Assembly (NCBI GenBank): GCA_041623475.1 | Contig: JBFJWU010000080.1 | Span: 1-11,347, forward strand | From: JBFJWU01 sp041623475 [NCBI: bacterium] | GTDB taxonomy: Bacteria; J088 | Length of the DNA stretch: 11,347 nucleotides | Direction of reading: 5' to 3' | Shown: positions 1 to 9,922 of the stretch, piece after piece | Layout: each line of letters opens with the position of its first letter | Numbering within the stretch: position 1 is the stretch's first letter | Notes under the pieces: model-generated | What the model was told of the DNA's origin: nothing | The model's input: only the letters and a program-made list of their open reading frames with translations | The model's database searches: none | Made by a program: the position numbers and the translations under genes

Positions 1-1485
1 ATCATCTTCTTCGAGATGGCAGTGCTGTACTTTGCCGGACCGATTGCCCTGAGCTGTCGCCTGCCGGCGCCCAAGGTCGGCTGGGCCAGCTTTGTGTTGA
101 TGGTGCTGGGGGCGGTGATTGTCAATGTGACAGTATTTGCCGGCAAGGCCGATGTGCTGTTCACGTCCTATCCTCCCCTCAAGGCGCATCCGGCCTTTTA
201 CCTGGGGATCATCCTGTTTGCCGTGGGCGCGCTGATGGTTTGCATGCTGTTTATGGCAACGCTTGTGGTGGCCAGGAAAGAACAAACGTACAAGGGATCG
301 ATCCCGCTGGTGACATTTGGCGGGATGACCGCGGCCATTATTGCGATTGTGACACTGCTTCACGGGGCGATTATCTACATCCCGACGTTCCTGTGGTCGA
401 TGGACATGATGGAAATGGATGCGCAGGTCTATCGTCTGGTCTGGTGGGGGTTGGGTCATTCGTCACAGCAGATCAACGTCGCGGCGCAGGTATCGATCTG
501 GTACCTGCTGGCCGGGTGGACGGTCGGCGGCGTTGTCCTGAACGAAAAAATCAGCCGGATGGCGTTTGTCCTGTATATCGGTTTCATCTCGATGGCATCG
601 GCGCACCATCTGCTGGTTGACCCGGGTATGGGCCCGGCCTGGAAGGTGTGGAATACCAGCTACGCGATGTACCTGGCAGTTCTGGCGAGCATGATCCACG
701 GTTTTACTGTTCCCGCCGGGATCGAGACCGGTCAACGGCTGCGCGGATACACCAACGGTGTTTTCGAATGGCTGCGCAAGGCCCCGTGGGGCGACCCGGG
801 ATTTTCCGGCCTGATGCTGTCGCTGGTGATCTTTGGCTTTCTGGGCGGAATCACCGGTGTCACGATCGGTACCGAACAGATCAATATCATTGCCCACAAT
901 ACAATGCGGATTCCCGGCCACTTTCACGTGACCGTTGTTGGCGGTACGGCGTTGGCGTTCATGGCGGTGACCTATTACGTACTGCCGCTGATTTTCCAGC
1001 GCAAGGTCGCCCTGTGGGGACTGGCCAGGATCCAGCCGTATTTGTTCGGGGTCGGTATCTCGGTGATGGCGATGTCCATGACATTTGCCGGGATCTTTGG
1101 TGTCCCGCGCCGTCATTGGGATATCTCGTTCAGTCAATCGCTGTTTAAGCTGGAGTTCCCGGCGGCTGTAGACCTGTTGATGGGAACCATGGCCCTGGGC
1201 GGAATGGTCGCGGCGATCGGTGTCCTGGCATTTGTGGCCATTGCCGTGATTACCGTCTTTTTTGGCAAGCCAATTGATTTCGACGCACTGGAGCCAGGTA
1301 TGGACGGCGTGCCGCAGGGCGTGATCAAACTGCCGGACCAGGTTCACAGCGACGAGGCTGTGGCCAAGGTCCATGCCCAGGGAAATCCTGGCACGCTGGT
1401 ACTGGTTTTCATCTTCCTCGCGGTGTTTGTACTGTATTACTTCACCAACTGGAAGATGCTGTCGATGATCTGGAAGATCGGCTGA
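1..1485 (+). CDS. B-family heme-copper oxidase subunit I, predicted NO reductase (sNOR-like), 5' truncated
   Basis: Polytopic inner-membrane catalytic subunit. The frame is open to base 1, so the N-terminal part, including the first heme b ligand, lies outside the window. Numbering from the ATG at 16, it follows Thermus ba3 subunit I closely: FTSYPPLKAHPAFYLG near residue 50, AHHLLVDPGM at 196-205, and IPGHFHV at 299-305. His148 and His197-His198 match the three histidine ligands of the active-site metal. His302 and His304 match the high-spin and low-spin heme ligands. The HPxVY motif is HSSQQ, so the cross-linked tyrosine of oxygen reductases is Gln152. Loss of that tyrosine is characteristic of NO reductases in this superfamily, and the same +4 position holds the FeB-ligand Glu in cNOR. 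The neighbouring SenC/SCO gene matches the sNOR gene order known from Nitrosomonas (norSY-senC). The CuA-type small subunit is probably upstream. The family is certain; NO rather than O2 as substrate is an inference. Confidence 0.85.
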   Translation: MIFFEMAVLYFAGPIALSCRLPAPKVGWASFVLMVLGAVIVNVTVFAGKADVLFTSYPPLKAHPAFYLGIILFAVGALMVCMLFMATLVVARKEQTYKGSIPLVTFGGMTAAIIAIVTLLHGAIIYIPTFLWSMDMMEMDAQVYRLVWWGLGHSSQQINVAAQVSIWYLLAGWTVGGVVLNEKISRMAFVLYIGFISMASAHHLLVDPGMGPAWKVWNTSYAMYLAVLASMIHGFTVPAGIETGQRLRGYTNGVFEWLRKAPWGDPGFSGLMLSLVIFGFLGGITGVTIGTEQINIIAHNTMRIPGHFHVTVVGGTALAFMAVTYYVLPLIFQRKVALWGLARIQPYLFGVGISVMAMSMTFAGIFGVPRRHWDISFSQSLFKLEFPAAVDLLMGTMALGGMVAAIGVLAFVAIAVITVFFGKPIDFDALEPGMDGVPQGVIKLPDQVHSDEAVAKVHAQGNPGTLVLVFIFLAVFVLYYFTNWKMLSMIWKIG

Positions 1486-1498
1486 GGCAGGCGGCCGC

Positions 1499-2416
1499 GT
1501 GAGCGATATGTTGGCTGACGCCGGCGGCGACGGCCGCCGGCAGGCCACCGGCATCTGGATGCTGGTCGCCTGGTCGCTGGTCACCGCAATGTGGTGGATG
1601 CTGGCGCTGGCCCCGGTGCCGGATCCGCCCGCGTGGCTGGCGGTGGCCCGGCAGGTCTGTTTCGGTACCACTGATTCGGGACTGCCGGATACATACGGCT
1701 GGGTGGCTTTGTTTGTCGGGCCAGGCAGCCTGCTGTTGGGTATCGCCGGCGCCTGGGGGCGGGACATCTGGAATGATATCCACCAGTTGTGGCGGTCCCA
1801 GGCGGGTCAGGTCGCGTGCCTTGCGTTTGTAACCTGTCTGGCTGTGGTGTTCAGCCTGGTGGCTGTACAGGTCAACAAAGGGCTGGCAATTGCCAATACA
1901 GATTATGGGCCAGGTGACCTGGGCGCATTGCCCGCTGATTATCCACGCCTGGGGCAGGAGTTGCCAGGTTTTTCATTGCAAAATCAGCACGGTCACCCGT
2001 TTACAGATGCGGACATGCAGGGATCGACGACATTGCTGACGTTCGCGTTCGGACATTGCCATACGGTCTGCCCGGTGGTCGTCAAGTCGGTTGCCAATGC
2101 GGTTGAATCAATTGACGATCCATCGGTGCGGGCGATGGTGATAACTCTGGATCCCTGGCGTGACACCCCCAATCGCCTGCACCATATGATTGGCCATTGG
2201 CAGCTGCCGGATAACAGCGTCCTGCTGTCCGGACCCGTTGATGATGTGCAGCAGGCCCTGGACGGCCTGAATGTCGCCCGCCAGCGCGACGAATCTTCAG
2301 GCGACGTGGCCCATCCGCCATTGGTTTACGTCGTCGATCGCGATGGCCTGATCGTTTACGCCTTCAATAACCCGCCGGTTGACTGGCTGGTCGAGGCCGC
2401 TGATCGCCTGAACTGA
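1499..2416 (+). CDS. SCO1/SenC copper chaperone fused to an N-terminal multi-TM domain
   Basis: The protein has 305 residues. Three hydrophobic segments (about 19-40, 67-86 and 103-126) precede a periplasmic thioredoxin-fold SCO domain (about 150-305). The copper-binding signature is complete: C187-H-T-V-C191 (CxxxC) plus His272 in AHPPLVYVVD, with LDPWRDTP as the typical SCO loop. SCO proteins load or reduce the binuclear CuA site of oxidase-type subunit II, so the likely client is the CuA subunit of the NOR-like enzyme encoded immediately upstream. Most SCO proteins have a single TM anchor. The extra region with VCFGTTDSGLPDTYGW and two further TM segments is unusual and may be a separate small oxidase-associated membrane protein fused on. 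The start is GTG, 13 bases after the preceding stop, with GAGG about 11 bases upstream. An in-frame ATG at 1508 is the alternative. It is probably cotranscribed with the upstream gene. Confidence 0.85.
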   Translation: MSDMLADAGGDGRRQATGIWMLVAWSLVTAMWWMLALAPVPDPPAWLAVARQVCFGTTDSGLPDTYGWVALFVGPGSLLLGIAGAWGRDIWNDIHQLWRSQAGQVACLAFVTCLAVVFSLVAVQVNKGLAIANTDYGPGDLGALPADYPRLGQELPGFSLQNQHGHPFTDADMQGSTTLLTFAFGHCHTVCPVVVKSVANAVESIDDPSVRAMVITLDPWRDTPNRLHHMIGHWQLPDNSVLLSGPVDDVQQALDGLNVARQRDESSGDVAHPPLVYVVDRDGLIVYAFNNPPVDWLVEAADRLN

Positions 2417-2553: not shown

Positions 2554-3087
2554 TTAATGAAGGACCAGGTCGTGGTCTTCGTTGTCCAGGAACACGACGT
2601 AGATTCGACCGGGAACGGCACCAATGGTCGCGGCCAGCGCGTGTGGTTTCAGAAACGTGACATCGGTGGTCGGCGCGATCCCTTCCGGTGAAAAGGTAAC
2701 GCGGATCTGTTGCCGACCTGCCGGGATGGGCACCAGTTCTTCCACCACCATTGGCCGGTCTCCTCGGGCACCGGCGGGGAAGACCTGCTGCCTGAGCAGC
2801 GTGTGTCCGTTACTGGTGGCCGTAACCCAGTACGGCACCACAGTGGATTCACAGACTTCCGGTCGGCGCATATGGGCGGCCAATTTTTCCAGTTCGCTCG
2901 CAGACAGGGTGCGGCATTCCTGGATGACCCCGCCTGCCCGCCGCAGCGATAATCGCAGGTTGGCGTGATCGGGCGTTGCGCCCAACTGGCTCCGCGGAAT
3001 CCAGACCAGGAACGCCGTCAGCGAAACGCCAACGCCGATTCGCAGAGCGGTGCGCAAGACCGACGGGCCAGCGCTAGAAACGGCCAC
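2554..3087 (-). CDS. membrane-anchored periplasmic protein of unknown function
   Basis: I do not recognise this 177-aa protein. Residues 10-30 form one hydrophobic segment after an Arg-containing N-terminus (LRTALRIGVGVSLTAFLVWIP), consistent with a signal anchor and a periplasmic body. The rest is rich in alternating hydrophobic residues (for example PIPAGRQQIRVTF and GRIYVVFLDNEDHD), suggesting a beta-sandwich. There are two cysteines, in QECRT and PEVCES, and the C-terminus is acidic and His-containing (NEDHDLVLH). The start is GTG at 3087, inside the end of the upstream cytochrome b fusion gene (14-base overlap). The two are therefore translationally coupled and probably functionally linked, perhaps as an accessory subunit on the periplasmic side. 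No strong Shine-Dalgarno is visible, as expected for coupling. Confidence 0.7.
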   Translation of the reverse strand: MAVSSAGPSVLRTALRIGVGVSLTAFLVWIPRSQLGATPDHANLRLSLRRAGGVIQECRTLSASELEKLAAHMRRPEVCESTVVPYWVTATSNGHTLLRQQVFPAGARGDRPMVVEELVPIPAGRQQIRVTFSPEGIAPTTDVTFLKPHALAATIGAVPGRIYVVFLDNEDHDLVLH

Positions 3088-4714
3088 GACGGATCACCGG
3101 TTTGGGTTCGCAGTCAGTTTGCTCATCGGCGCCAGACCGGGAATCAGGTGCACCCAGTTGCGCCAGTTCGTTTTCCAGATCCCTGATCTGTCGGGCCAGG
3201 GACTGCGCCTCGCCAACCCCCAGCGAACAGATGCGCACCCGGCGGCGGTCAACGCGGGCCTGCAGCTCGGCCTCGCGGTCGTTGTAGACCCGTTCGCGAA
3301 GCCATTTGGGCCCTTCACGGCAGGCTGCGTCACGGGATGGGCAGGTCAGGACGATGACACCGGATGCCCCTCGTTTGAGTACCTGTTCAATTGCTGATGT
3401 ATGCAAATTCCCACCGCATTCCACCGTGATGATGAGAACATTTTCGAACTGTGACAGCGCCGGGCTATGGCTCAGGGAATTGGTTCGGCAGGCAAACAAC
3501 ACCATGCCGTTTTCCGCGAGATCCTGCGGTTTTGCGAGGATGGAATCAATCAACGTCAGCTGGCTGCGCCCTGTAAAGGCAGGTGGGCCGACACCCATTG
3601 GTGCGCACGACCCGGCGCAGATGCCACACGATGTGCATGAATCGGGATTAACAACGGCGACGTGCTTTGATCGACTGCCCGGCTGCTGCCGTTCCTGCAT
3701 CTGGATTGCGTCGAACGGGCAGTCCAGGTAGCAGGTCGTGCAGCCAGTACACAGGTCTGGGTTGACCCACGACGGCGCAAGGTCTGGCTGCCGGCGCAGC
3801 CACCACCAGGGAACAGACGTCAGCAGTAACCAGCTGCCCAGCCAGATCCCCAGGTGCGCCAGGGGCGAGACCGCAAGAGCTACGGGAACCCAGAAATTGT
3901 AGAACAGGTCGGTGGGTACATTGGCCGGAACCTGCAACAAATCCGCCCGCGGTGCCAGCGGCAGTGGCAGCAATGCACCGACAACGCCAAGGCAAAAGAC
4001 AATTGCGGCGCTCATTTGCCGAGGCGGCAGCAGGACCGGGCGGACAATCCTGACCAGATGAATCCACAGCAGGAGCGCCAGGAACAACGGCAGGCACACG
4101 TGCAGGAAGAGGTTCATGAAAAAGAAGGTACCCGGCACCGGTTGGGCGCCGGCAAACGTCCTGCCGATGGGAACCGAGAAGATCGGCAGCAGGTCCAGCA
4201 TCCGGGTCAGCTGGACCGCGACCACCTGGCCCTGCTGATCCCATGCCATGATCTGTCCGGTCCAGCCACAGGCCAGGAATATTGCCAGCAGGCCGACACC
4301 GCTGATCCAGGCGATGGTGCGTGGACCCCAGGCACGTCCGGCCAGGAATATTTTCAATGCGTGGACCAGGATCGCGACAATCGAAAGGTCGGCACCATAG
4401 GTATGGACAGCGCGAGCCCAGGCTCCCAGGGGAATCTCGTTCTGAATCCGCAGGACGGACGCGTAGGGCGCATCGACCTGATAAAACAGGAACAGGTACA
4501 GTCCGGTTACAAGCGTGACCAGGAACGCCAGGATGGCGATCGTTCCGGTCTGGTACAGGGGATTCCAGGCGGATGAAAAGAACCGGTTGAACATCGCGTC
4601 GGCCAATGTCACAGCGCGGGACAACAGGCGCACCCAGACCGACCAATGCTCGGGCCGGCGATCGGCGTGGGAGATTCCTGGCGTTTGTTCTGTGTCGGTC
4701 GGTTCGGCCTGCAT
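3074..4714 (-). CDS. cytochrome b - 2[4Fe-4S] ferredoxin - MvhD-like iron-sulfur fusion
   Basis: This 546-aa protein has three modules. Residues about 35-305 are a cytochrome b/b6-type N-terminal domain with both bis-His pairs at canonical 14-residue spacing: His104/His118 and His205/His219. It should hold two b hemes in the membrane. Residues 318-372 form a ferredoxin with CTGCTTCYLDCP (Cys322, 325, 328, 332) and CTSCGICAGSCAP (Cys360, 363, 366, 370), giving two [4Fe-4S] clusters. Residues about 400-500 resemble the hydrogenase iron-sulfur subunit family (MvhD/FrhD-like, [2Fe-2S]), with Cys409, Cys433 in VECGGNLH, Cys458 and Cys465. The C-terminus (505-520) is a short charged helix. The order of cofactors suggests electron transfer between the quinone pool and a cytoplasmic partner. 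The transcript likely starts near 4761 under the palindrome at 4789-4816. The ATG lacks a clear Shine-Dalgarno. The modules are clear; the physiological role is unknown. Confidence 0.85.
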   Translation of the reverse strand: MQAEPTDTEQTPGISHADRRPEHWSVWVRLLSRAVTLADAMFNRFFSSAWNPLYQTGTIAILAFLVTLVTGLYLFLFYQVDAPYASVLRIQNEIPLGAWARAVHTYGADLSIVAILVHALKIFLAGRAWGPRTIAWISGVGLLAIFLACGWTGQIMAWDQQGQVVAVQLTRMLDLLPIFSVPIGRTFAGAQPVPGTFFFMNLFLHVCLPLFLALLLWIHLVRIVRPVLLPPRQMSAAIVFCLGVVGALLPLPLAPRADLLQVPANVPTDLFYNFWVPVALAVSPLAHLGIWLGSWLLLTSVPWWWLRRQPDLAPSWVNPDLCTGCTTCYLDCPFDAIQMQERQQPGSRSKHVAVVNPDSCTSCGICAGSCAPMGVGPPAFTGRSQLTLIDSILAKPQDLAENGMVLFACRTNSLSHSPALSQFENVLIITVECGGNLHTSAIEQVLKRGASGVIVLTCPSRDAACREGPKWLRERVYNDREAELQARVDRRRVRICSLGVGEAQSLARQIRDLENELAQLGAPDSRSGADEQTDCEPKPVIRRGRF

Positions 4715-4788: not shown

Positions 4789-4816
4789 CAGCGATATGAC
4801 CTAAGTCATATCGCTG
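4789..4816. promoter_or_regulatory. 28-bp palindromic operator, DNR/FNR-type core
   Basis: The arms are 12 bases (CAGCGATATGAC and its exact reverse complement), separated by CTAA. The core ATGAC-N4-GTCAT at 4796-4809 has the half-site spacing of Crp/Fnr-family boxes (FNR consensus TTGAT-N4-ATCAA) and shares TGAC-N4-GTCA with the site before nnrS. It lies between the divergent cytochrome b fusion gene and the DUF2249 gene. The likely binder is the DNR-like regulator encoded at 5175-5873. The symmetry is seen directly; the protein assignment is inferred. Confidence 0.75.
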
Positions 4817-4845: not shown

Positions 4846-4878
4846 ATGGATAACGCTACGGAACTGCGAGCCCAATGA
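4846..4878 (+). CDS. possible 10-codon leader ORF coupled to the DUF2249 gene
   Basis: ATG at 4846 opens a ten-codon frame (MDNATELRAQ). Its TGA stop at 4876-4878 overlaps the next gene's start as ATGA. The ATG falls within about two bases of the transcription start predicted from the operator and -10 element, so the leader ORF would be translated from the very 5' end, and ribosomes finishing it would be delivered to the DUF2249 start, which lacks a strong Shine-Dalgarno. The arrangement could also be chance, because the ORF is very short. Confidence 0.3.
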   Translation: MDNATELRAQ

Positions 4879-5159
4879 AAATTGATCCGGCAGAAATGGA
4901 TCCCCGGGCTGAACTGTCTGCTGGTGATCAACCCGCGACCTGGCACCTGGATGTTCGCCCGATCCTGGAAGACGGCGGCGAACCGTATGCAACGATCATG
5001 TCGTGCGCCAGCCAGTTGCTGCCCGGTGACGTGTTGGTGCTGCACACGCTGTTCAAGCCAGAGCCCATGATTCGGCAGTTGGCACGAATGGAATTCGATC
5101 TGCTCGTTGACCACCCGGGACCGGACCACTGGACGGTGCGCGTTGCCCGCAATACCTGA
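4875..5159 (+). CDS. DUF2249 domain protein
   Basis: This small soluble protein of 94 residues has no signal peptide or TM segment. The DUF2249 hallmarks are clear: HLDVRPILEDGGEPYATIM (24-42) and LLPGDVLVLHTLFKPEPMIRQL (48-69), followed by a short beta-rich end (WTVRVARNT). The family often occurs in denitrification, NO-stress and hemerythrin-linked loci and is related in fold to the SirA/TusA group, but its biochemistry is not settled. Its single cysteine (in SCASQLLPG) is not the TusA-type catalytic Cys. The start overlaps the stop of the ten-codon ORF above. It is driven from the palindromic operator divergently from the cytochrome b fusion, so both probably respond to the same signal. 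It ends 15 bases before the convergent regulator gene. Confidence 0.8.
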   Translation: MKIDPAEMDPRAELSAGDQPATWHLDVRPILEDGGEPYATIMSCASQLLPGDVLVLHTLFKPEPMIRQLARMEFDLLVDHPGPDHWTVRVARNT

Positions 5160-5174
5160 ATCGAGCTGAACGGA

Positions 5175-5873
5175 TCAGCCCGGTCGAACGATTCGTTTCA
5201 GCGCCGGCCGATTGAGGATTGTGATTCGGCCGTTTTCAGTGCGGATATAACCGTCCTTGCCCCACTTGCTCATGATGCGAATGACCGTTTCGATGCGGGC
5301 GCCGACCAGATCAGCGATGTCCCGACGGCTGAGCGGGATTGGCACCGGGATCCCGCCACCAGAAACTTCTTCGTTCTTTGAGAACTGCAGCAGTGCGGTC
5401 GCAATGCGGAAATCGACACCGCCCCCACCAAGATCCTTGACGCGGCGGCTGAGCGAGCGCATTCGCAATGTGAGGTCACGAACCAGTGCCAGGGTCGCAT
5501 CAGGATAGGCCTCGATCAAATGAAAGTAATCCCGGGCGGCCATGACATAGACGATCGAGTCCTCTTGTGCCGCTGCGGATGCCGGGTAGCCGGCGCGGTC
5601 AATCAGGGCGACTTCACCGACGGCTTCGCCGAACCCGAAGATGTCAAGGATCAGTTCGCGGCCGGAGTCCAGCGATTTGTAAACCTTGATTGCCCCGGAA
5701 TATACGACATACAGATGCTCGCAGGGCTCGTCTTCCAGGAACAGGATCTCGCCCGCGCCAAAGGCCCGCGCAGAAATTCGTGACGACAGCCATTCTGATG
5801 CCTTGTCGGAAAGACCTGCAAAACGCGGAATCTGTCGCAGGGCCGCGATGTCGGCGGAAGCGCTGGTGCTCAT
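5175..5873 (-). CDS. Crp/Fnr-family regulator, DNR/NnrR-like
   Basis: The protein has 232 residues. An N-terminal cyclic-nucleotide-binding-like beta-roll spans about 15-120 (GEILFLEDEPCEHLYVVYSG, FGFGEAVGEVALI), the dimerisation helix is at about 122-147, and a winged HTH spans about 150-225 (LSRRDIADLVGARIETVIRIM). There is a single cysteine (Cys51), so FNR-type [4Fe-4S] oxygen sensing is unlikely. The lack of cluster cysteines and the nir/nor/nnrS setting point to a DNR- or NnrR-like sensor, which in known members responds to NO through heme. In the recognition helix, Glu195 and Arg199 match FNR Glu209 and Arg213, while FNR Ser212 corresponds to Ile198. It probably controls the TGAC-N4-GTCA-type sites in this window. 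It is divergent from nnrS. The ATG has no visible Shine-Dalgarno. Confidence 0.88.
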   Translation of the reverse strand: MSTSASADIAALRQIPRFAGLSDKASEWLSSRISARAFGAGEILFLEDEPCEHLYVVYSGAIKVYKSLDSGRELILDIFGFGEAVGEVALIDRAGYPASAAAQEDSIVYVMAARDYFHLIEAYPDATLALVRDLTLRMRSLSRRVKDLGGGGVDFRIATALLQFSKNEEVSGGGIPVPIPLSRRDIADLVGARIETVIRIMSKWGKDGYIRTENGRITILNRPALKRIVRPG

Positions 5874-5935: not shown

Positions 5936-5977
5936 TTGACAAATGTCATACAACGGCAGGCGCAAACGGACTATCCT
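5936..5977 (+). promoter_or_regulatory. nnrS promoter: DNR/FNR-type box plus -10
   Basis: TTGACAAATGTCAT at 5936-5949 contains the perfect palindrome TGAC-AAAT-GTCA, the same half-sites as the operator at 4796-4809. Exactly 22 bases follow before TATCCT (5972-5977), the class II FNR arrangement, which places the transcription start at 5984-5985, at the nnrS ATG. The ATG at 5943 lies inside the box and is therefore an unlikely start codon. The regulator gene lies on the other side, so autoregulation from the same site is possible. Confidence 0.6.
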
Positions 5978-5984
5978 TTCAACC

Positions 5985-7199
5985 ATGGCGACACCGGCAC
6001 AACAACTGCACCGCATTGAACTGGACCTGGTACCCGGTCGACCGGGGGCTTTGCAGACCGTTTTTGCGATTGGTTTCAGGCCGTTCTTCCTGATGGCAAC
6101 CGTCTTTGCGACGCTGGCAGTCGCGGTCTGGACCGGATTCCTGGCTACGGGAACGGGCGCTGGATTTTTCGGAACCTGGGGAATCCCCGGCTGGCACGGG
6201 CACGAGATGGTCTTCGGGTATGGCAGCGCCGTTGTTGTCGGGTTCCTGCTGACCGCAAGTGCGAACTGGACCGGCTTGGAGACCTTGCGTGGCTGGCCAC
6301 TGGCCGGCCTCTGCGGGCTGTGGCTGGGAGCCAGGGTGTTGGCCTGGTCCGGTATTGATCCGGTCTGGCCCGGCGCATTTGACTTCATGTTTATGCTTGC
6401 AGCCAGTATCGCTTTCGCTGATCCGGTTTTGCGAGCGGACAACCGGCGCAACCTGATCTTTGTCCCGTTCCTGGCGGTCCTGACGCTGGCAGGTGTGATT
6501 TCTGCCAGCGGTGCGGCGGCAGGGCAGCCGCATTGGACCCGGACGGGCAACCTGATGGGCCTGTGGTCGATCATTGGCATCCTGCTGATTGTTGCTGGCC
6601 GGGTCGTCCCGTTTTTTGCCGAGCGGGCGCTGGGAACCCGCATCCCGCGAGCACCGCGATTGGATCGTTATGTTCTGGGTGGGCATGTGGTTTGGGCGGC
6701 GGCACGGCTGACAGGTTTTGACCTTGGTGCAGCTGCGGTAGCGCTGGTGGTCGGTGGGGCCCTGATTATGCGGATCGTCCAGTGTTTCGACCGCGGGGTC
6801 CTGCAGGTTCCGTTACTGTGGATCCTGGTGGCAGGGCAGGCCCTGCTGGCATCTGCTTACCTGGTGGATGCCGCCGAAATAGCCGGGTGGTTCGTCCCGG
6901 GCGCGTCCATTCATCTGTTTACGATCGGGGGCATCGGCGTCTTTACCATCGGCATGATGGTGCGTGTGTCACTTGGGCACACGGGTCGGGCGTTGCGCGC
7001 CCAGCCAGCACACGTTGTCGCCTTTGTCGCCATTGTTGCTGCGGCGGTCATGCGACCGGCAGCGGTATCCGTTGGCGGTGATGCCGCGCGCTGGCTGATG
7101 CTGGGCAGTGGCGGGGCGTGGCTGGTGGCGTTTGCGAGTATCGCGATGTCGTTGGCGCCCCTGCTGTTGACCCCTCGCGTGGATGGGCGGCTGGTGTAG
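5985..7199 (+). CDS. nnrS: NnrS family membrane heme protein
   Basis: This inner-membrane protein of 404 residues is made almost entirely of hydrophobic helices (about 12). NnrS hallmarks are present: GFRPFFL near residue 30, [10 protein letters not shown] with His71 and His73, [12 protein letters not shown], and a C-terminal half with [26 protein letters not shown]. Characterised NnrS proteins bind heme and copper and protect against NO stress during denitrification; the exact reaction is unknown. I chose the ATG at 5985 over the upstream ATG at 5943 because the latter lies within the operator and the extra residues are atypical. No Shine-Dalgarno precedes 5985 and the predicted transcript starts there. 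The gene is 110 bases upstream of nirK with no clear terminator between, so it probably heads the nirK operon. Confidence 0.93.
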
Positions 7200-7296
7200 C
7201 CGTGTGTTTTTCGGCCAAATTTTTCCAATCCAAACCTTCGGGCGCAGGCAGTTGGACGCCGCCGACCAAGCTCGAATTTGTCTTGTCCAATCGACC

Positions 7297-7303
7297 AAGG
7301 AGG
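7297..7303 (+). promoter_or_regulatory. nirK ribosome binding site
   Basis: AAGGAGG lies six bases before ATG 7310. It fixes the start there rather than at the longer in-frame opening from 7118, which runs inside nnrS. Its strength contrasts with the absent Shine-Dalgarno of nnrS. Confidence 0.85.
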
Positions 7304-7309
7304 ACCATC

Positions 7310-8428
7310 ATGATGTCGATTAATCCGTTCAAGGTGCTTGCAGCCGCCGTAGTGGTGTTTGTGGCATCGCCTGCCTGGTCAGAGGAATACAAACCTTTGA
7401 CCGAAGAGAAGATTGCAAAACTGGCCAGGGTCAAGCAAAAGCTGGTGCCCCCGCCGGCGTTTCCGGCACACGAGCAGACCGCCAAGGATTTCAAGGTGGT
7501 TGAGGTCGATCTGCCAATCATCGAAAAAGAAATCGTCATTGACGATTCCGGTACCAAAGTCTGGGCGTTTACGTACAACGGGTCAGTGCCCGGTCCGATG
7601 ATCGTTGTCCACGAGGGCGACTATCTGGAGTTTACGCTGCGCAACATCAAGACCAACCTGCTGGGGCATAACATCGATTTCCATGCGTCGACAGGCGCCC
7701 TGGGCGCCGGTGCGATTTCGCACGTGGCCCCCGGCGAAGAGGTCAAGATCAGGTTCCGGGCGACCAAAGCCGGAACATTTGTCTATCATTGTGCGCCCGG
7801 TGGAACGATGATCCCCTGGCATGTCGTACGAGGTATGAACGGCGCAATCACCGTGCTGCCCCGTGACGGGCTCCGCGATGACCGTGGCAAGCAGATTACG
7901 TATGACAAGGCCTACTATATCGGCGAGCAGGACTTTTACGTCAAGCAAGGCGAAAACGGCATCTACAAGTCATACGAAAACGCCGTTGCCGGAATGGCCG
8001 ACGATATGGAAGTCATGCGAACGCTGATCCCGTCCCATATCGTTTTCAACGGTAAGGTCGGTGCCTTGACCGGTGACAACGCGATGACCGCCAATGTCGG
8101 CGACACGGTTCTGTTTGTCCACAGCCAGGCCAACTACGACACCCGGCCGCACATTATCGGCGGGCATGGGGATTATGTCTGGGAGCGCGGCTCATTCGAC
8201 GACAAACCCGAGACCGATCTGGAAACCTGGTTCATTGCCGGTGGCAGTGCCGGCGCCGCGATTTATACATTCCGGCAGCCGGGCATTTACGCCTATGTGA
8301 ACCATAACCTGATCGAGGCCGTCATCAAGGGTGCAACAGCACACATCAAGGTCGAAGGCGAATGGGACGACGACCTGATGAAGGTGTTGTCCAAGCCCAA
8401 GGGCAAGAAAGCGCCCGCAGAGCACTGA
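7310..8428 (+). CDS. nirK: copper-containing nitrite reductase NirK
   Basis: The protein has 372 residues. A Sec signal peptide (residues 1-24, ending SPAWS) is followed by two cupredoxin domains. NirK reduces nitrite to NO in the periplasm as a trimer. All ligands are visible: type 1 Cu His120, Cys161, His171 and Met176; type 2 Cu His125, His160 and His332. The catalytic Asp123 (HNIDFH) and the active-site His of [12 protein letters not shown] (281-292) are present too. The loop [11 protein letters not shown] is one residue longer between Cys161 and His171 than in the Alcaligenes/Achromobacter proteins as I remember them. There is no C-terminal cytochrome or cupredoxin extension, so an external donor is needed. 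It is flanked by nnrS and nirV in one orientation, consistent with an NO/nitrite-responsive operon. Confidence 0.97.
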
Positions 8429-8467: not shown

Positions 8468-9259
8468 TTGAGGCACTTCGTTGCCAATGGACTCCGGGTT
8501 TCGTTTGTCCTGTGCATGGGGTTGTCTTTTCTGGCGGCCGGCGCGCCGGCCAGAGGTGCCAGCGCCGTGCCCGATTATCCCGTTGTGCTGGTCCCGGCCG
8601 GGGAGATGAGCTACGACATTCCCGTGCCCAGTTACGAGGGCGTCAGTTATGTCAATGTCCAGATCCGCATCGATCGGCCATTCCGGATTGGCAGGTACGA
8701 GGTGTCCGTGGGGCAATGGAACGCCTGCGCCGACGACGGTTGGTGCCAGGCGCGCCCCGAGTTGGCTGACCCCGACCGGCAGTCGCACCCCATGGTCAAG
8801 GTTACCTGGCACGATGCGTGGCGATTCGCGCGTTGGCTGTCATCCAGGACCGGACAGACATACCGGTTGCCCACTGAACACGAATGGTTCTACGCGGCGA
8901 ATGTTGGCCAGTACCGGCGCGAACAAAGCCTGACCTATGACTACGCCAACCTGGAACAGATTCGCCAGACGCCCAAGATCACCTATCCGGTGGGTACATT
9001 CGGTGCCAACGAATGGGGCATCTTTGATGTCTCCGGCAACGTCTGGGAATGGACATTGGCCTGTTATGCACTGGACCAGGATGTCCTGCGCCTGCCACAG
9101 CGGGCGAGCGAATTGAATGACCCGTCGCGCTGTGCGACCCGGATCACCGGTGGCGAGCATCGGGCCCACGTACCTGATTTCATTGCTGATACCTATAACG
9201 GCGGCTGCGCTGCACTGAAACCCGCCGCCAACCTGGGCTTTCGCCTGGTGTTGGAATAA
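8468..9259 (+). CDS. nirV: NirV-like formylglycine-generating-enzyme-fold protein
   Basis: This exported protein of 263 residues has the FGE/SUMF1 fold. Motifs run in family order: VVLVPAGEM (39-47), MVKVTWHDAWRFARWLS (109-125), YRLPTEHEWFYAA (132-144), FGANEWGIFDVSGNVWEWT (178-196) and NLGFRLV (255-261). An FGE-like gene directly after nirK is the known nirKV arrangement; the role of NirV is not established. The usual FGE catalytic Cys pair is not evident: the C-terminal segment has one Cys (Cys247 in GGCAAL), so formylglycine formation is unlikely. The start is TTG at 8468, with GGAG at 8458-8461. Starting there completes a signal peptide (MRHFVANGLR, a hydrophobic stretch, then ARGASA), whereas the ATG at 8516 would remove its basic n-region. 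It lies 39 bases after nirK and 15 before the SCO gene. Confidence 0.85.
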   Translation: MRHFVANGLRVSFVLCMGLSFLAAGAPARGASAVPDYPVVLVPAGEMSYDIPVPSYEGVSYVNVQIRIDRPFRIGRYEVSVGQWNACADDGWCQARPELADPDRQSHPMVKVTWHDAWRFARWLSSRTGQTYRLPTEHEWFYAANVGQYRREQSLTYDYANLEQIRQTPKITYPVGTFGANEWGIFDVSGNVWEWTLACYALDQDVLRLPQRASELNDPSRCATRITGGEHRAHVPDFIADTYNGGCAALKPAANLGFRLVLE

Positions 9260-9274: not shown

Positions 9275-9922
9275 ATGAACTTGATGACAAAGCCCAGGCC
9301 GGCAATGGTCGCACCGCTGCTGGTTGTCGCTGCCCTGGTACTGGTGCCTGGCGTTGGCCACAATGGCCACCCGCACCATCACCACAGTGACCATGCCACC
9401 GCGCCCGTCCCACCGCTGCCGATCCAGGCCGAGCTGATTACCGGTAACTTTTCACTGGTCAATGTCCGCACCGGCGAGCAGGTCACCCAGAATACGTTCA
9501 GCGGGCGACATCGACTGGTCTTTTTTGGCTTTACCAGCTGTGGAACGATCTGCCCGATCGGGTTGGCGGTGCTGGGGCAGGTAATAAAGATCCTGTCGGA
9601 AAAGCGGGTCGACGTTGTGCCGATCTTTATTACAATCGATCCCCGACGGGATACGCCGGAAAAGATGAAGACCTATATGGACCATTTTGACCCGGCAATC
9701 ATTGGGCTCAGCGGCACGGCCGGACAGGTCGACCAGGCAATGCAGGCGTTTCGCATCGAGGCCCACCTGATCGGCAATTTGTCAGACGACAACTACCAGT
9801 TCGATCATCCCGGCATCTTCATGTTGATGGGTCCGGACGGCGGGTACGTTGACAGCATGCCCAGCTCGGGCGACCCCGATGCACTGGCAGGCCGGATCGA
9901 ACAGGTGGTCGGGCAAGACTGA
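9275..9922 (+). CDS. SCO1/SenC/PrrC family copper chaperone
   Basis: The protein has 215 residues. One N-terminal hydrophobic segment (about 9-28) serves as signal or anchor, followed by a His-rich linker (HNGHPHHHHSDHA, 29-41) and a thioredoxin-like SCO domain. The copper site is complete: Cys89-G-T-I-Cys93 and His178 (FDHPGIFML), with TIDPRRDTP as the SCO loop. It probably binds Cu in the periplasm. Placement after nirK and nirV suggests delivery to NirK or to the CuA site of the NOR. The His-rich segment may be an extra metal-capture region. It differs from the SCO at 1499-2416, which has additional TM helices and no His-rich stretch, so the two are not a recent duplication. Confidence 0.9.
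   Translation: MNLMTKPRPAMVAPLLVVAALVLVPGVGHNGHPHHHHSDHATAPVPPLPIQAELITGNFSLVNVRTGEQVTQNTFSGRHRLVFFGFTSCGTICPIGLAVLGQVIKILSEKRVDVVPIFITIDPRRDTPEKMKTYMDHFDPAIIGLSGTAGQVDQAMQAFRIEAHLIGNLSDDNYQFDHPGIFMLMGPDGGYVDSMPSSGDPDALAGRIEQVVGQD

What the first reader, a model, noticed from the sequence alone, without database searches (positions are those of the whole stretch)
3074..4714. Cytochrome b fused to a 2[4Fe-4S] ferredoxin and an MvhD-like module, in a denitrification island
Four heme-ligand histidines at canonical spacing, eight ferredoxin cysteines and a Cys-containing MvhD-like domain sit in one chain. MvhD normally joins hydrogenase to heterodisulfide reductase; tying it to a diheme cytochrome b gives a quinone-to-cytoplasm wire. 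It shares a DNR-type operator with DUF2249 and is coupled to a novel periplasmic-anchored protein. This is the best candidate for an undescribed electron-transfer system here.
Basis: partly seen in the sequence, partly recalled or inferred. Interest (0 to 1): 0.78.

Follow-up and report, generated by a model that had tools for sequence, protein, structure and literature searches.

The report
Membrane electron wire beside eNOR reductase
A membrane protein that joins a two-heme cytochrome to iron-sulfur domains, with an uncharacterised membrane-anchored partner, turns up almost wherever one class of bacterial nitric oxide reductase (eNOR) does in the groups examined, so it probably moves electrons for that enzyme or for building it.

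Summary
Window 3074-4714(-) encodes 546 aa: diheme cytochrome b, two [4Fe-4S] sites and an MvhD/FlpD domain. In 82 aligned proteins all four heme His and eight ferredoxin Cys are kept (the ferredoxin was partly the search bait). The neighbouring heme-copper enzyme is not sNOR: its active-site Gln marks eNOR. Of 802 genomes sampled from three phyla, 119 have this protein, 112 eNOR, 108 both; 9 of 13 inspected exceptions are cut clusters. Its partner (window 2554-3087), a membrane-anchored beta-sandwich without a Pfam family, is found in 77 of 81 loci, fused to it in 14. Best reading: a transmembrane redox module of eNOR clusters; electron supply to eNOR is favoured over copper maturation, unproven. 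Against a universal need: Thermus and Thermomicrobium plasmid clusters with Gln-type enzymes lack it. NirK, NnrS and DUF2249 are rarely near it elsewhere. The Hdr/hydrogenase analogy is not supported. My searches found no description; the main eNOR paper could not be read, and one appendix-table row already lists the architecture.

The parts
3074..4714 (-). CYTB: 546-aa cytochrome b - 2[4Fe-4S] - MvhD/FlpD fusion protein
3779..4639 (-). membrane domain (residues ~26-312): cytochrome b helices A-F, heme His 104/118/205/219; Asp269 at the position of the Glu of the Qo-site PEWY motif
   Evidence: (Z 24.5, 257 residues, 2.6 A to a mycobacterial bc1 cytochrome b)
3602..3769 (-). two [4Fe-4S] sites (residues 316-371)
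3152..3505 (-). MvhD/FlpD domain (residues ~404-521), Cys 409/433/458/465
   Evidence: MvhD 5odc_D, E 3.2e-4
2554..3087 (-). HYP: 177-aa partner, one N-terminal helix (10-34, probable TM anchor) and a beta-sandwich, Cys58/Cys79; its start overlaps the CYTB end by 14 nt
4789..4816 (.). 12-nt perfect inverted repeat with 4-nt spacer, CRP/FNR-class site (ATGAC-N4-GTCAT) between the divergent CYTB and DUF2249 genes
1..1485 (+). eNOR-type heme-copper subunit I, 5' end cut by the window edge; active site GHSSQQINV
1499..2416 (+). SCO1/SenC copper chaperone of the eNOR cluster
4875..5159 (+). DUF2249 protein, divergent from CYTB (neighbour here, seen in 1 of 81 other loci)
5175..5873 (-). CRP/FNR-family regulator, candidate for the palindromes at 4796 and 5936 (binding untested)

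Best explanation
CYTB and HYP form a two-protein (sometimes one-chain) membrane redox module that belongs to eNOR-type nitric oxide reductase gene clusters. Shown by sequence: co-occurrence with eNOR in three phyla, fusion of the two partners, conserved heme and Fe-S ligands, cytochrome b fold. Inferred: electrons enter from a cytoplasmic low-potential donor (ferredoxin or a partner of the MvhD domain) through the Fe-S head, cross the membrane over the two b hemes and leave on the periplasmic side, to quinone at a Qo-like pocket or through HYP, ending at the CuA-bearing eNOR, so that NO can be removed without the ordinary respiratory chain.
For: Co-occurrence (CYTB / eNOR / both, of genomes searched): Gemmatimonadota 62/61/58 of 249; Pseudomonadota 34/30/29 of 398; Myxococcota 23/21/21 of 155; the centre genome of each draw was itself chosen as a carrier. 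In 12 of the 29 Pseudomonadota with both, the two lie on different contigs, so plain neighbourhood does not explain the pairing. In 81 loci: heme-copper subunit I in 64, SCO in 68, subunit II in 62, all 62 with CxxxCxxxH. HYP domain in 77 of 81; the other four (L029, L043, L070, L080) are those whose CYTB match stops within about 10 nt of the end of the locus. HYP is fused C-terminally to CYTB in 14 of 81, which puts HYP across the membrane from the Fe-S head if its helix spans the membrane. The 12 fused rows in the CYTB tree lie in two separate parts of it. No c-type cytochrome gene recurs near CYTB in 81 loci. In nine loci a paralogous cytochrome b stands in the same cluster; in the three intact sequences printed its head is [2Fe-2S]-FAD-NAD like (Pfam on L079), a normal NADH-oxidising head, which favours electron input from the cytoplasm. 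Dyads within one mismatch of TTGAY-N4-RTCAA are found at the start of 23 of 38 co-directional clusters (mean 1.25 in 20 single-base shuffles).
Against: Thermus thermophilus and Thermomicrobium roseum plasmid clusters with a Gln-type subunit I have no CYTB, HYP or SCO annotated beside them, nor does one genome of the Gemmatimonadota draw with a divergent GHGTQQIN enzyme have CYTB nearby (G210): the enzyme type can do without the module. G115, G391 and G399 carry CYTB with no eNOR found and no clear cut to explain it. No dyad of the above kind stands before 22 divergent clusters (0 of 22, 0.45 in shuffles). Some carriers have ordinary cytochrome b genes (three seen), so a quinol-to-cytochrome c route may exist anyway. 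Direction of flow, donor, acceptor and contact with eNOR are untested. The p-values are not corrected for kinship.
Confidence: 0.45

Rival explanations
1. Maturation reductase: CYTB passes cytoplasmic electrons across the membrane to reduce Cu(II) or disulfides (HYP Cys pair, SCO) while the CuA/CuB sites of eNOR are assembled, in the manner of CcoG or CrpH.
For: SCO stands in 68 of 81 loci; HYP keeps a Cys pair in 75 of 77 loci; CcoG, an Fe-S cupric reductase with an Ig-like periplasmic domain, and CrpH, a PepSY_TM membrane protein with heme-binding motifs, support heme-copper enzymes (PMC7558416 passages; PMC13038864 abstract). The Thermus and Thermomicrobium clusters lack SCO, CYTB and HYP together.
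Against: No CcoG-type membrane Fe-S domain is among the 13 Pfam families matched (the name Fer4_5 is recalled). A Qo-like loop with Asp269 in 80 of 82 suggests quinone chemistry. The HYP Cys pair is missing in L031 and L055.
Confidence: 0.3
2. Quinol-oxidising bifurcating complex: quinol at the Qo-like site gives one electron to HYP/eNOR and one through the b hemes to cytoplasmic ferredoxin.
For: bc1-like helices A-F; Asp269 aligned with the Glu of PEWY in two of three cellular cytochrome b proteins; an anchored beta-sandwich partner in the topological place of the Rieske protein.
Against: No metal site is known in HYP; driving ferredoxin through b hemes would need unusually low heme potentials (general knowledge); the paralog with an NADH-type head argues for input instead.
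Confidence: 0.12
3. One reading: an MvhD bridge to hydrogenase or heterodisulfide reductase.
For: FlpD domain above cut-off; best NCBIfam hit of the C-terminal half is HdrA2, far below its cut-off (76.9 of 1100 bits); eight of 26 carriers have a second FlpD protein, in seven of them in a frame of 736-791 aa.
Against: No hydrogenase or Hdr gene among the window proteins scanned; sole FlpD of the genome in 18 of 26 carriers.
Confidence: 0.04
4. Hitch-hiking: the gene merely travels with eNOR on a mobile island and has an unrelated role.
For: Most pairs are neighbours (55 of 58 and 17 of 29 on one contig), and one lies on a plasmid.
Against: Co-occurrence holds when the two lie on different contigs (12 of 29 Pseudomonadota), and eNOR and CYTB trees show the same three main groups.
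Confidence: 0.05

Closest known systems
Cytochrome b of bc1/b6f complexes (PF00033; VIA-align Z 24.5 to a mycobacterial bc1 cytochrome b)
   Same: helices A-F, four His ligands, near-invariant Gly 57/71/139/153, an ef loop
   Different: structural match ends near residue 312, PEWY becomes xDWFY, no Rieske or c1 match among the window proteins scanned, an Fe-S head added
HdrA2-MvhD C-terminus / MvhD (FlpD, PF02662; 5odc_D)
   Same: 2[4Fe-4S] followed by an MvhD domain with a Cys set
   Different: no flavin HdrA part and no hydrogenase here; fused to cytochrome b
eNOR / ba3-a1 heme-copper clusters
   Same: the cluster in which it stands (subunits I and II, small TM subunit, SCO, often CyoE)
   Different: CYTB and HYP are not named in the passages read (PMC8756737 text, PMC8879329, PMC6431628)
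RME88945.1 (appendix Table A3 of PMC8756737)
   Same: cytochrome b6, DMSOR-beta-like (Fe-S) and FlpD domains in one ORF
   Different: also holds a c-type cytochrome (C1) domain; listed only, not discussed in the passages read
CcoG and CrpH (membrane reductases that support heme-copper enzymes)
   Same: transmembrane redox protein needed by or encoded with a heme-copper enzyme
   Different: different membrane domains (cytochrome b here)

Membership tests
eNOR (window subunit I) | heme-copper subunit I fold | tested here: met
   PF00115 183.8 bits, cut-off 34.8; the 5' end lies outside the window
eNOR (window subunit I) | Gln at the active-site Tyr position | tested here: met
   GHSSQQINV in the window; criterion from Table A4 of PMC8756737, modified there from Hemp and Gennis; GHxxQQ[IV]N in 60 of 64 loci with a subunit I hit, the other four being fragments of 256-330 aa
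eNOR (window subunit I) | CuA/cupredoxin subunit II | tested here: inconclusive
   would lie beyond the window edge; CxxxCxxxH in 62 of 62 relatives that have it
eNOR (window subunit I) | NO reductase activity | not testable with these tools
   needs an enzyme assay
sNOR (NorSY) | Asn at the active-site position | tested here: not met
   Gln in the window
cytochrome b of bc1/b6f complexes | four heme His on helices B and D | tested here: met
   82/82
cytochrome b of bc1/b6f complexes | Qo PEWY motif | tested here: not met
   xDWFY in the family, TDLFY in the window
cytochrome b of bc1/b6f complexes | C-terminal helices and Rieske partner | tested here: not met
   no C-terminal cytochrome b or Rieske family matched among the 12 window proteins scanned; Rieske genes elsewhere were not searched
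MvhD/FlpD | PF02662 domain with conserved Cys | tested here: met
   52.8 bits, cut-off 22.3; Cys 409/433/458 and a shifted fourth
MvhD/FlpD | functional link to hydrogenase and HdrA | tested here: inconclusive
   no such gene among the window proteins scanned; only FlpD in 18 of 26 carriers; HdrA without FlpD not searched
CcoG/NosR-type polyferredoxin reductases | their membrane Fe-S domain (Fer4_5, recalled) | tested here: not met
   not among the 13 Pfam families matched

The most novel reading that the evidence does not exclude
CYTB-HYP is a Rieske-free relative of the bc1 complex: quinol is oxidised at a DWFY-type Qo pocket, HYP replaces the Rieske protein and hands one electron to the CuA of eNOR, and the other runs inward over the b hemes to the ferredoxin/MvhD head, so that NO respiration pays for reduced ferredoxin.
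Probability: 0.1. Interest if true: 0.92.

Novelty: new variant of a known kind. Interest (0 to 1): 0.62.

Why it matters
eNOR is one of the non-canonical nitric oxide reductases (NO to N2O); its electron donor and assembly are, as far as I recall, not settled. A membrane redox module that accompanies it in 108 of 112 eNOR-bearing genomes drawn from three phyla, with a partner that no Pfam family covers, is a direct and testable candidate for its electron input or its maturation, and a marker for one large branch of eNOR.

Tried and rejected
Single-protein scans of viral contigs and genome contigs found no relatives; the second genome-contig scan, allowed after an empty first, used the two-row alignment A1 and kept the best 80 of 289. 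Literature: MvhD + cytochrome b (seven papers, only the listing seen); hydrogenase delta subunit + NO (none); norSY-senC-orf1 (listing; passages of PMC6967387 and PMC3475470): I set this cluster aside because its enzyme has Asn and the fifth gene described for Bacillus azotoformans is a protein with six predicted TM helices; that this is orf1 is my inference; NOR family names (passages); eNOR with cytochrome b or ferredoxin; PEWY motif (listing only). TTGAT-N4-ATCAA: five hits with two mismatches in the window against 3.4 expected, no signal. The exact window palindrome is in none of the other 101 loci. Foldseek of HYP gave nothing at E 0.001 or below; VIA-align gave Z 8.7 over 92 residues to HGSNAT, near the level the tool calls common, so no kinship is claimed. 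CxxCH in six CYTB chains lies at the ferredoxin region, and I do not read it as a c-heme site. Window eNOR groups with L027-L029 (support 99/91) while window CYTB groups with Gemmatimonadota (97/91); the CYTB branch is long (1.05), the tool warns of such rows, and I ran no test of the clash, so no transfer is claimed. A first count of the HYP Cys (64 of 76) was made on rows cut at 260 residues, which spoils fused chains; the profile count (75 of 77) replaces it. That profile comes from A5, whose rows had been picked with a Cys motif (51 rows), so only the remaining rows are an independent test. The Myxococcota exceptions G733 and G749 were not opened. Acidobacteriota and Verrucomicrobiota were not surveyed.

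Full report
What is there. The ORF 4714->3074 on the minus strand encodes 546 residues with Pfam matches above cut-off to cytochrome b (46-223), Fer4 (317-338 and a second stretch) and FlpD/MvhD (420-521). The partner gene 3087->2554 overlaps its end by 14 nt. Around it: a heme-copper subunit I whose 5' end lies outside the window, SCO, DUF2249, a CRP/FNR regulator, NnrS, NirK, an FGE-type protein, a second SCO and a RibD_C protein. No whole genome is held for the window.

Conservation. From a plasmid homologue (Defluviimonas, 33% identity; locus L001) I made a two-row alignment and fetched 80 loci from species genomes (289 relatives confirmed, best 80 kept). In 82 aligned proteins the four heme His are invariant, as are the eight ferredoxin Cys and MvhD Cys 409 and 433; Cys 458 is 81/82 and the fourth MvhD Cys column 76/82. 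Ferredoxin patterns were the bait, so that part is partly circular. The AlphaFold model (mean pLDDT 90.5) matches bc1 cytochrome b over about residues 47-312 (Z 24.5, 257 residues, 2.6 A), that is helices A-F; a profile of the family reaches as far in sequence. Aligned to three cellular cytochrome b proteins, Asp269 (80/82) falls on the Glu of PEWY in two (L104, L105) and on the Val of PVWY in the third (L106); the blocks there are insignificant on their own in L104 and L106 and continuous with the rest only in L105.

The enzyme next door. In 60 of 64 loci with a subunit I hit the motif is GHxxQQ[IV]N; the other four are fragments in which it was not found. The window reads GHSSQQINV. Table A4 of PMC8756737 (passage seen) gives Gln for eNOR, Asn for sNOR, Asp for gNOR, Glu for cNOR and qNOR. 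PMC8879329 (passages) equates eNOR with the B-family subtype ba3-a1, and PMC6431628 (passages) notes the missing Tyr and SCO in the ba3-a1 operon of Magnetospirilli. So the window enzyme is eNOR-type by sequence; its activity is not shown.

Co-occurrence. With one profile for CYTB (28 rows, E <= 1e-40) and one for eNOR (21 rows, E <= 1e-120), thresholds set by me: Gemmatimonadota 249 genomes, CYTB 62, eNOR 61, both 58; Pseudomonadota 398 genomes, 34, 30, 29; Myxococcota 155 genomes, 23, 21, 21. Phylum names come from record titles and tree labels of the centre loci; completeness is not told, and the centre genomes were chosen as carriers. Fisher p for the first two is 6e-48 and 8e-38, not corrected for kinship. 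Sum: 802 genomes, 119 CYTB, 112 eNOR, 108 both, 11 CYTB only, 4 eNOR only. I opened 13 of these 15 exceptions. Nine are cut clusters: G375, G481, G532, G148, G184 (contig ends at CYTB or SCO), G237 (a truncated eNOR is there), G323, G182, G125 (contig ends on the CYTB side). Four are not explained that way: G115, G391 and G399 (CYTB, no eNOR found; G399 has CyoE beside it and 1.9 kb of contig before that) and G210 (divergent GHGTQQIN enzyme, no CYTB near). The two Myxococcota exceptions were not opened. In 12 of 29 Pseudomonadota carriers the two genes lie on different contigs.

Neighbourhood. In the 81 loci (L001-L081): subunit I in 64, SCO 68, subunit II 62, small TM subunit 60, CyoE 39, hemerythrin 17, CRP-type regulator 7, NnrS 3, NirK 2, DUF2249 1 (flanks of up to 9 kb, often cut by contig ends). 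The eNOR core is the constant company; the NirK-NnrS-DUF2249 surroundings of the window are not.

The partner. A profile finds HYP in 77 of 81 loci; in the four others (L029, L043, L070, L080) the CYTB match stops within about 10 nt of the end of the locus. Both Cys are kept in 75 of the 77. In 14 of 81 HYP is fused to the CYTB C-terminus behind a hydrophobic helix; the 12 of these in the CYTB tree lie in two separate groups, and in the Myxococcota draw 21 of 23 CYTB frames are 688 aa or longer, the other two matches being partial at a contig start. HYP stays with CYTB where CYTB is away from eNOR (L083, L098-L100). The model (pLDDT 92.3) is one N-terminal helix and a beta-sandwich. No Pfam family matches any of the 51 members of A5, and no convincing PDB fold match was found.

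Regulation. WTGAC-N4-GTCAW occurs twice in the window (0.04 expected), both times between divergent genes: CYTB/DUF2249 and the CRP-type regulator/NnrS. Around the start of 38 co-directional clusters, 23 have a dyad within one mismatch of TTGAY-N4-RTCAA (1.25 in single-base shuffles); of 22 divergent clusters none has (0.45). Of seven CYTB genes with no eNOR close by or on another contig, three have such a dyad upstream (no chance estimate). Which regulator binds is unknown.

Mechanism. The common ground is a transmembrane electron path tied to eNOR. For input from the cytoplasm: the Fe-S head, and a paralog in nine loci whose head, in the three intact sequences printed, is [2Fe-2S]-FAD-NAD like. 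For direct supply: no c-type cytochrome recurs near CYTB. For maturation: SCO and the Cys pair of HYP, and the precedents CcoG and CrpH. For a quinone site: the Qo-like loop. In Thermus and Thermomicrobium, Gln-type clusters (GHGAQQVN) stand without CYTB, HYP and SCO, in Thermus a few genes from nirS; a tblastn of CYTB found no hit on those plasmids, but the chromosomes were not seen. Hence the module is an accessory of one large branch, not of the enzyme type as such.

Novelty. I found no description of the pair in the searches. The architecture itself is in print as a table row (RME88945.1, with a cytochrome c domain), and the plasmid record calls the homologue 'cytochrome b N-terminal domain-containing protein'. 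The main eNOR paper was not held, so prior description there cannot be excluded.

Noticed in passing
L079:11096-13012; also L053, L061, L068, L069, L074, L075, L076, L077: A second cytochrome b related to CYTB in nine loci. In L079 (Pfam), L075 and L053 (sequence seen) its head is [2Fe-2S] + FAD + NAD-binding; the L068 frame is cut or broken; the other five were not looked at further. L097 (genome G620) has one too.
   Followed up: partly
L035:4147-5562, L036:4039-5529, L040:3868-5433, L079:15336-16793 and 13 other loci: A second, very divergent heme-copper subunit I (GH[VITMA][LIV]Q motif, 30-68 bits to the eNOR queries, mostly no HH pair by a simple pattern) recurs in 17 loci.
   Followed up: no
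L085, L086, L095, L096: Two tandem CYTB copies in genomes G481, G532, G455 and G390.
   Followed up: no
L001:11104-11508 and 16 other loci: A hemerythrin-like protein is near the cluster in 17 of 81 loci.
   Followed up: no
L102, L103: Gln-type subunit I on Thermomicrobium roseum and Thermus thermophilus plasmids, in Thermus a few genes from nirS, without CYTB, HYP or SCO annotated nearby.
   Followed up: partly
window 7118-8428, 8468-9259, 9275-9922: NirK (likely start near 7310) followed by an FGE-sulfatase-type protein and a second SCO protein.
   Followed up: no
window 5936-5949: Second CRP/FNR-class palindrome, between the regulator gene and NnrS.
   Followed up: partly
G126, G303, G299, G355, G291, G272, G311, G359: These carriers have a second FlpD protein: open frames of 736-791 aa in seven (about the size of an HdrA2-MvhD fusion), 259 aa in G126.
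   Followed up: no
window 1-1485 and 3074-4714 against L027-L029 and Gemmatimonadota loci: The window's eNOR and CYTB group with different relatives (supports 99/91 and 97/91), a possible sign of separate histories; the CYTB branch is long.
   Followed up: partly
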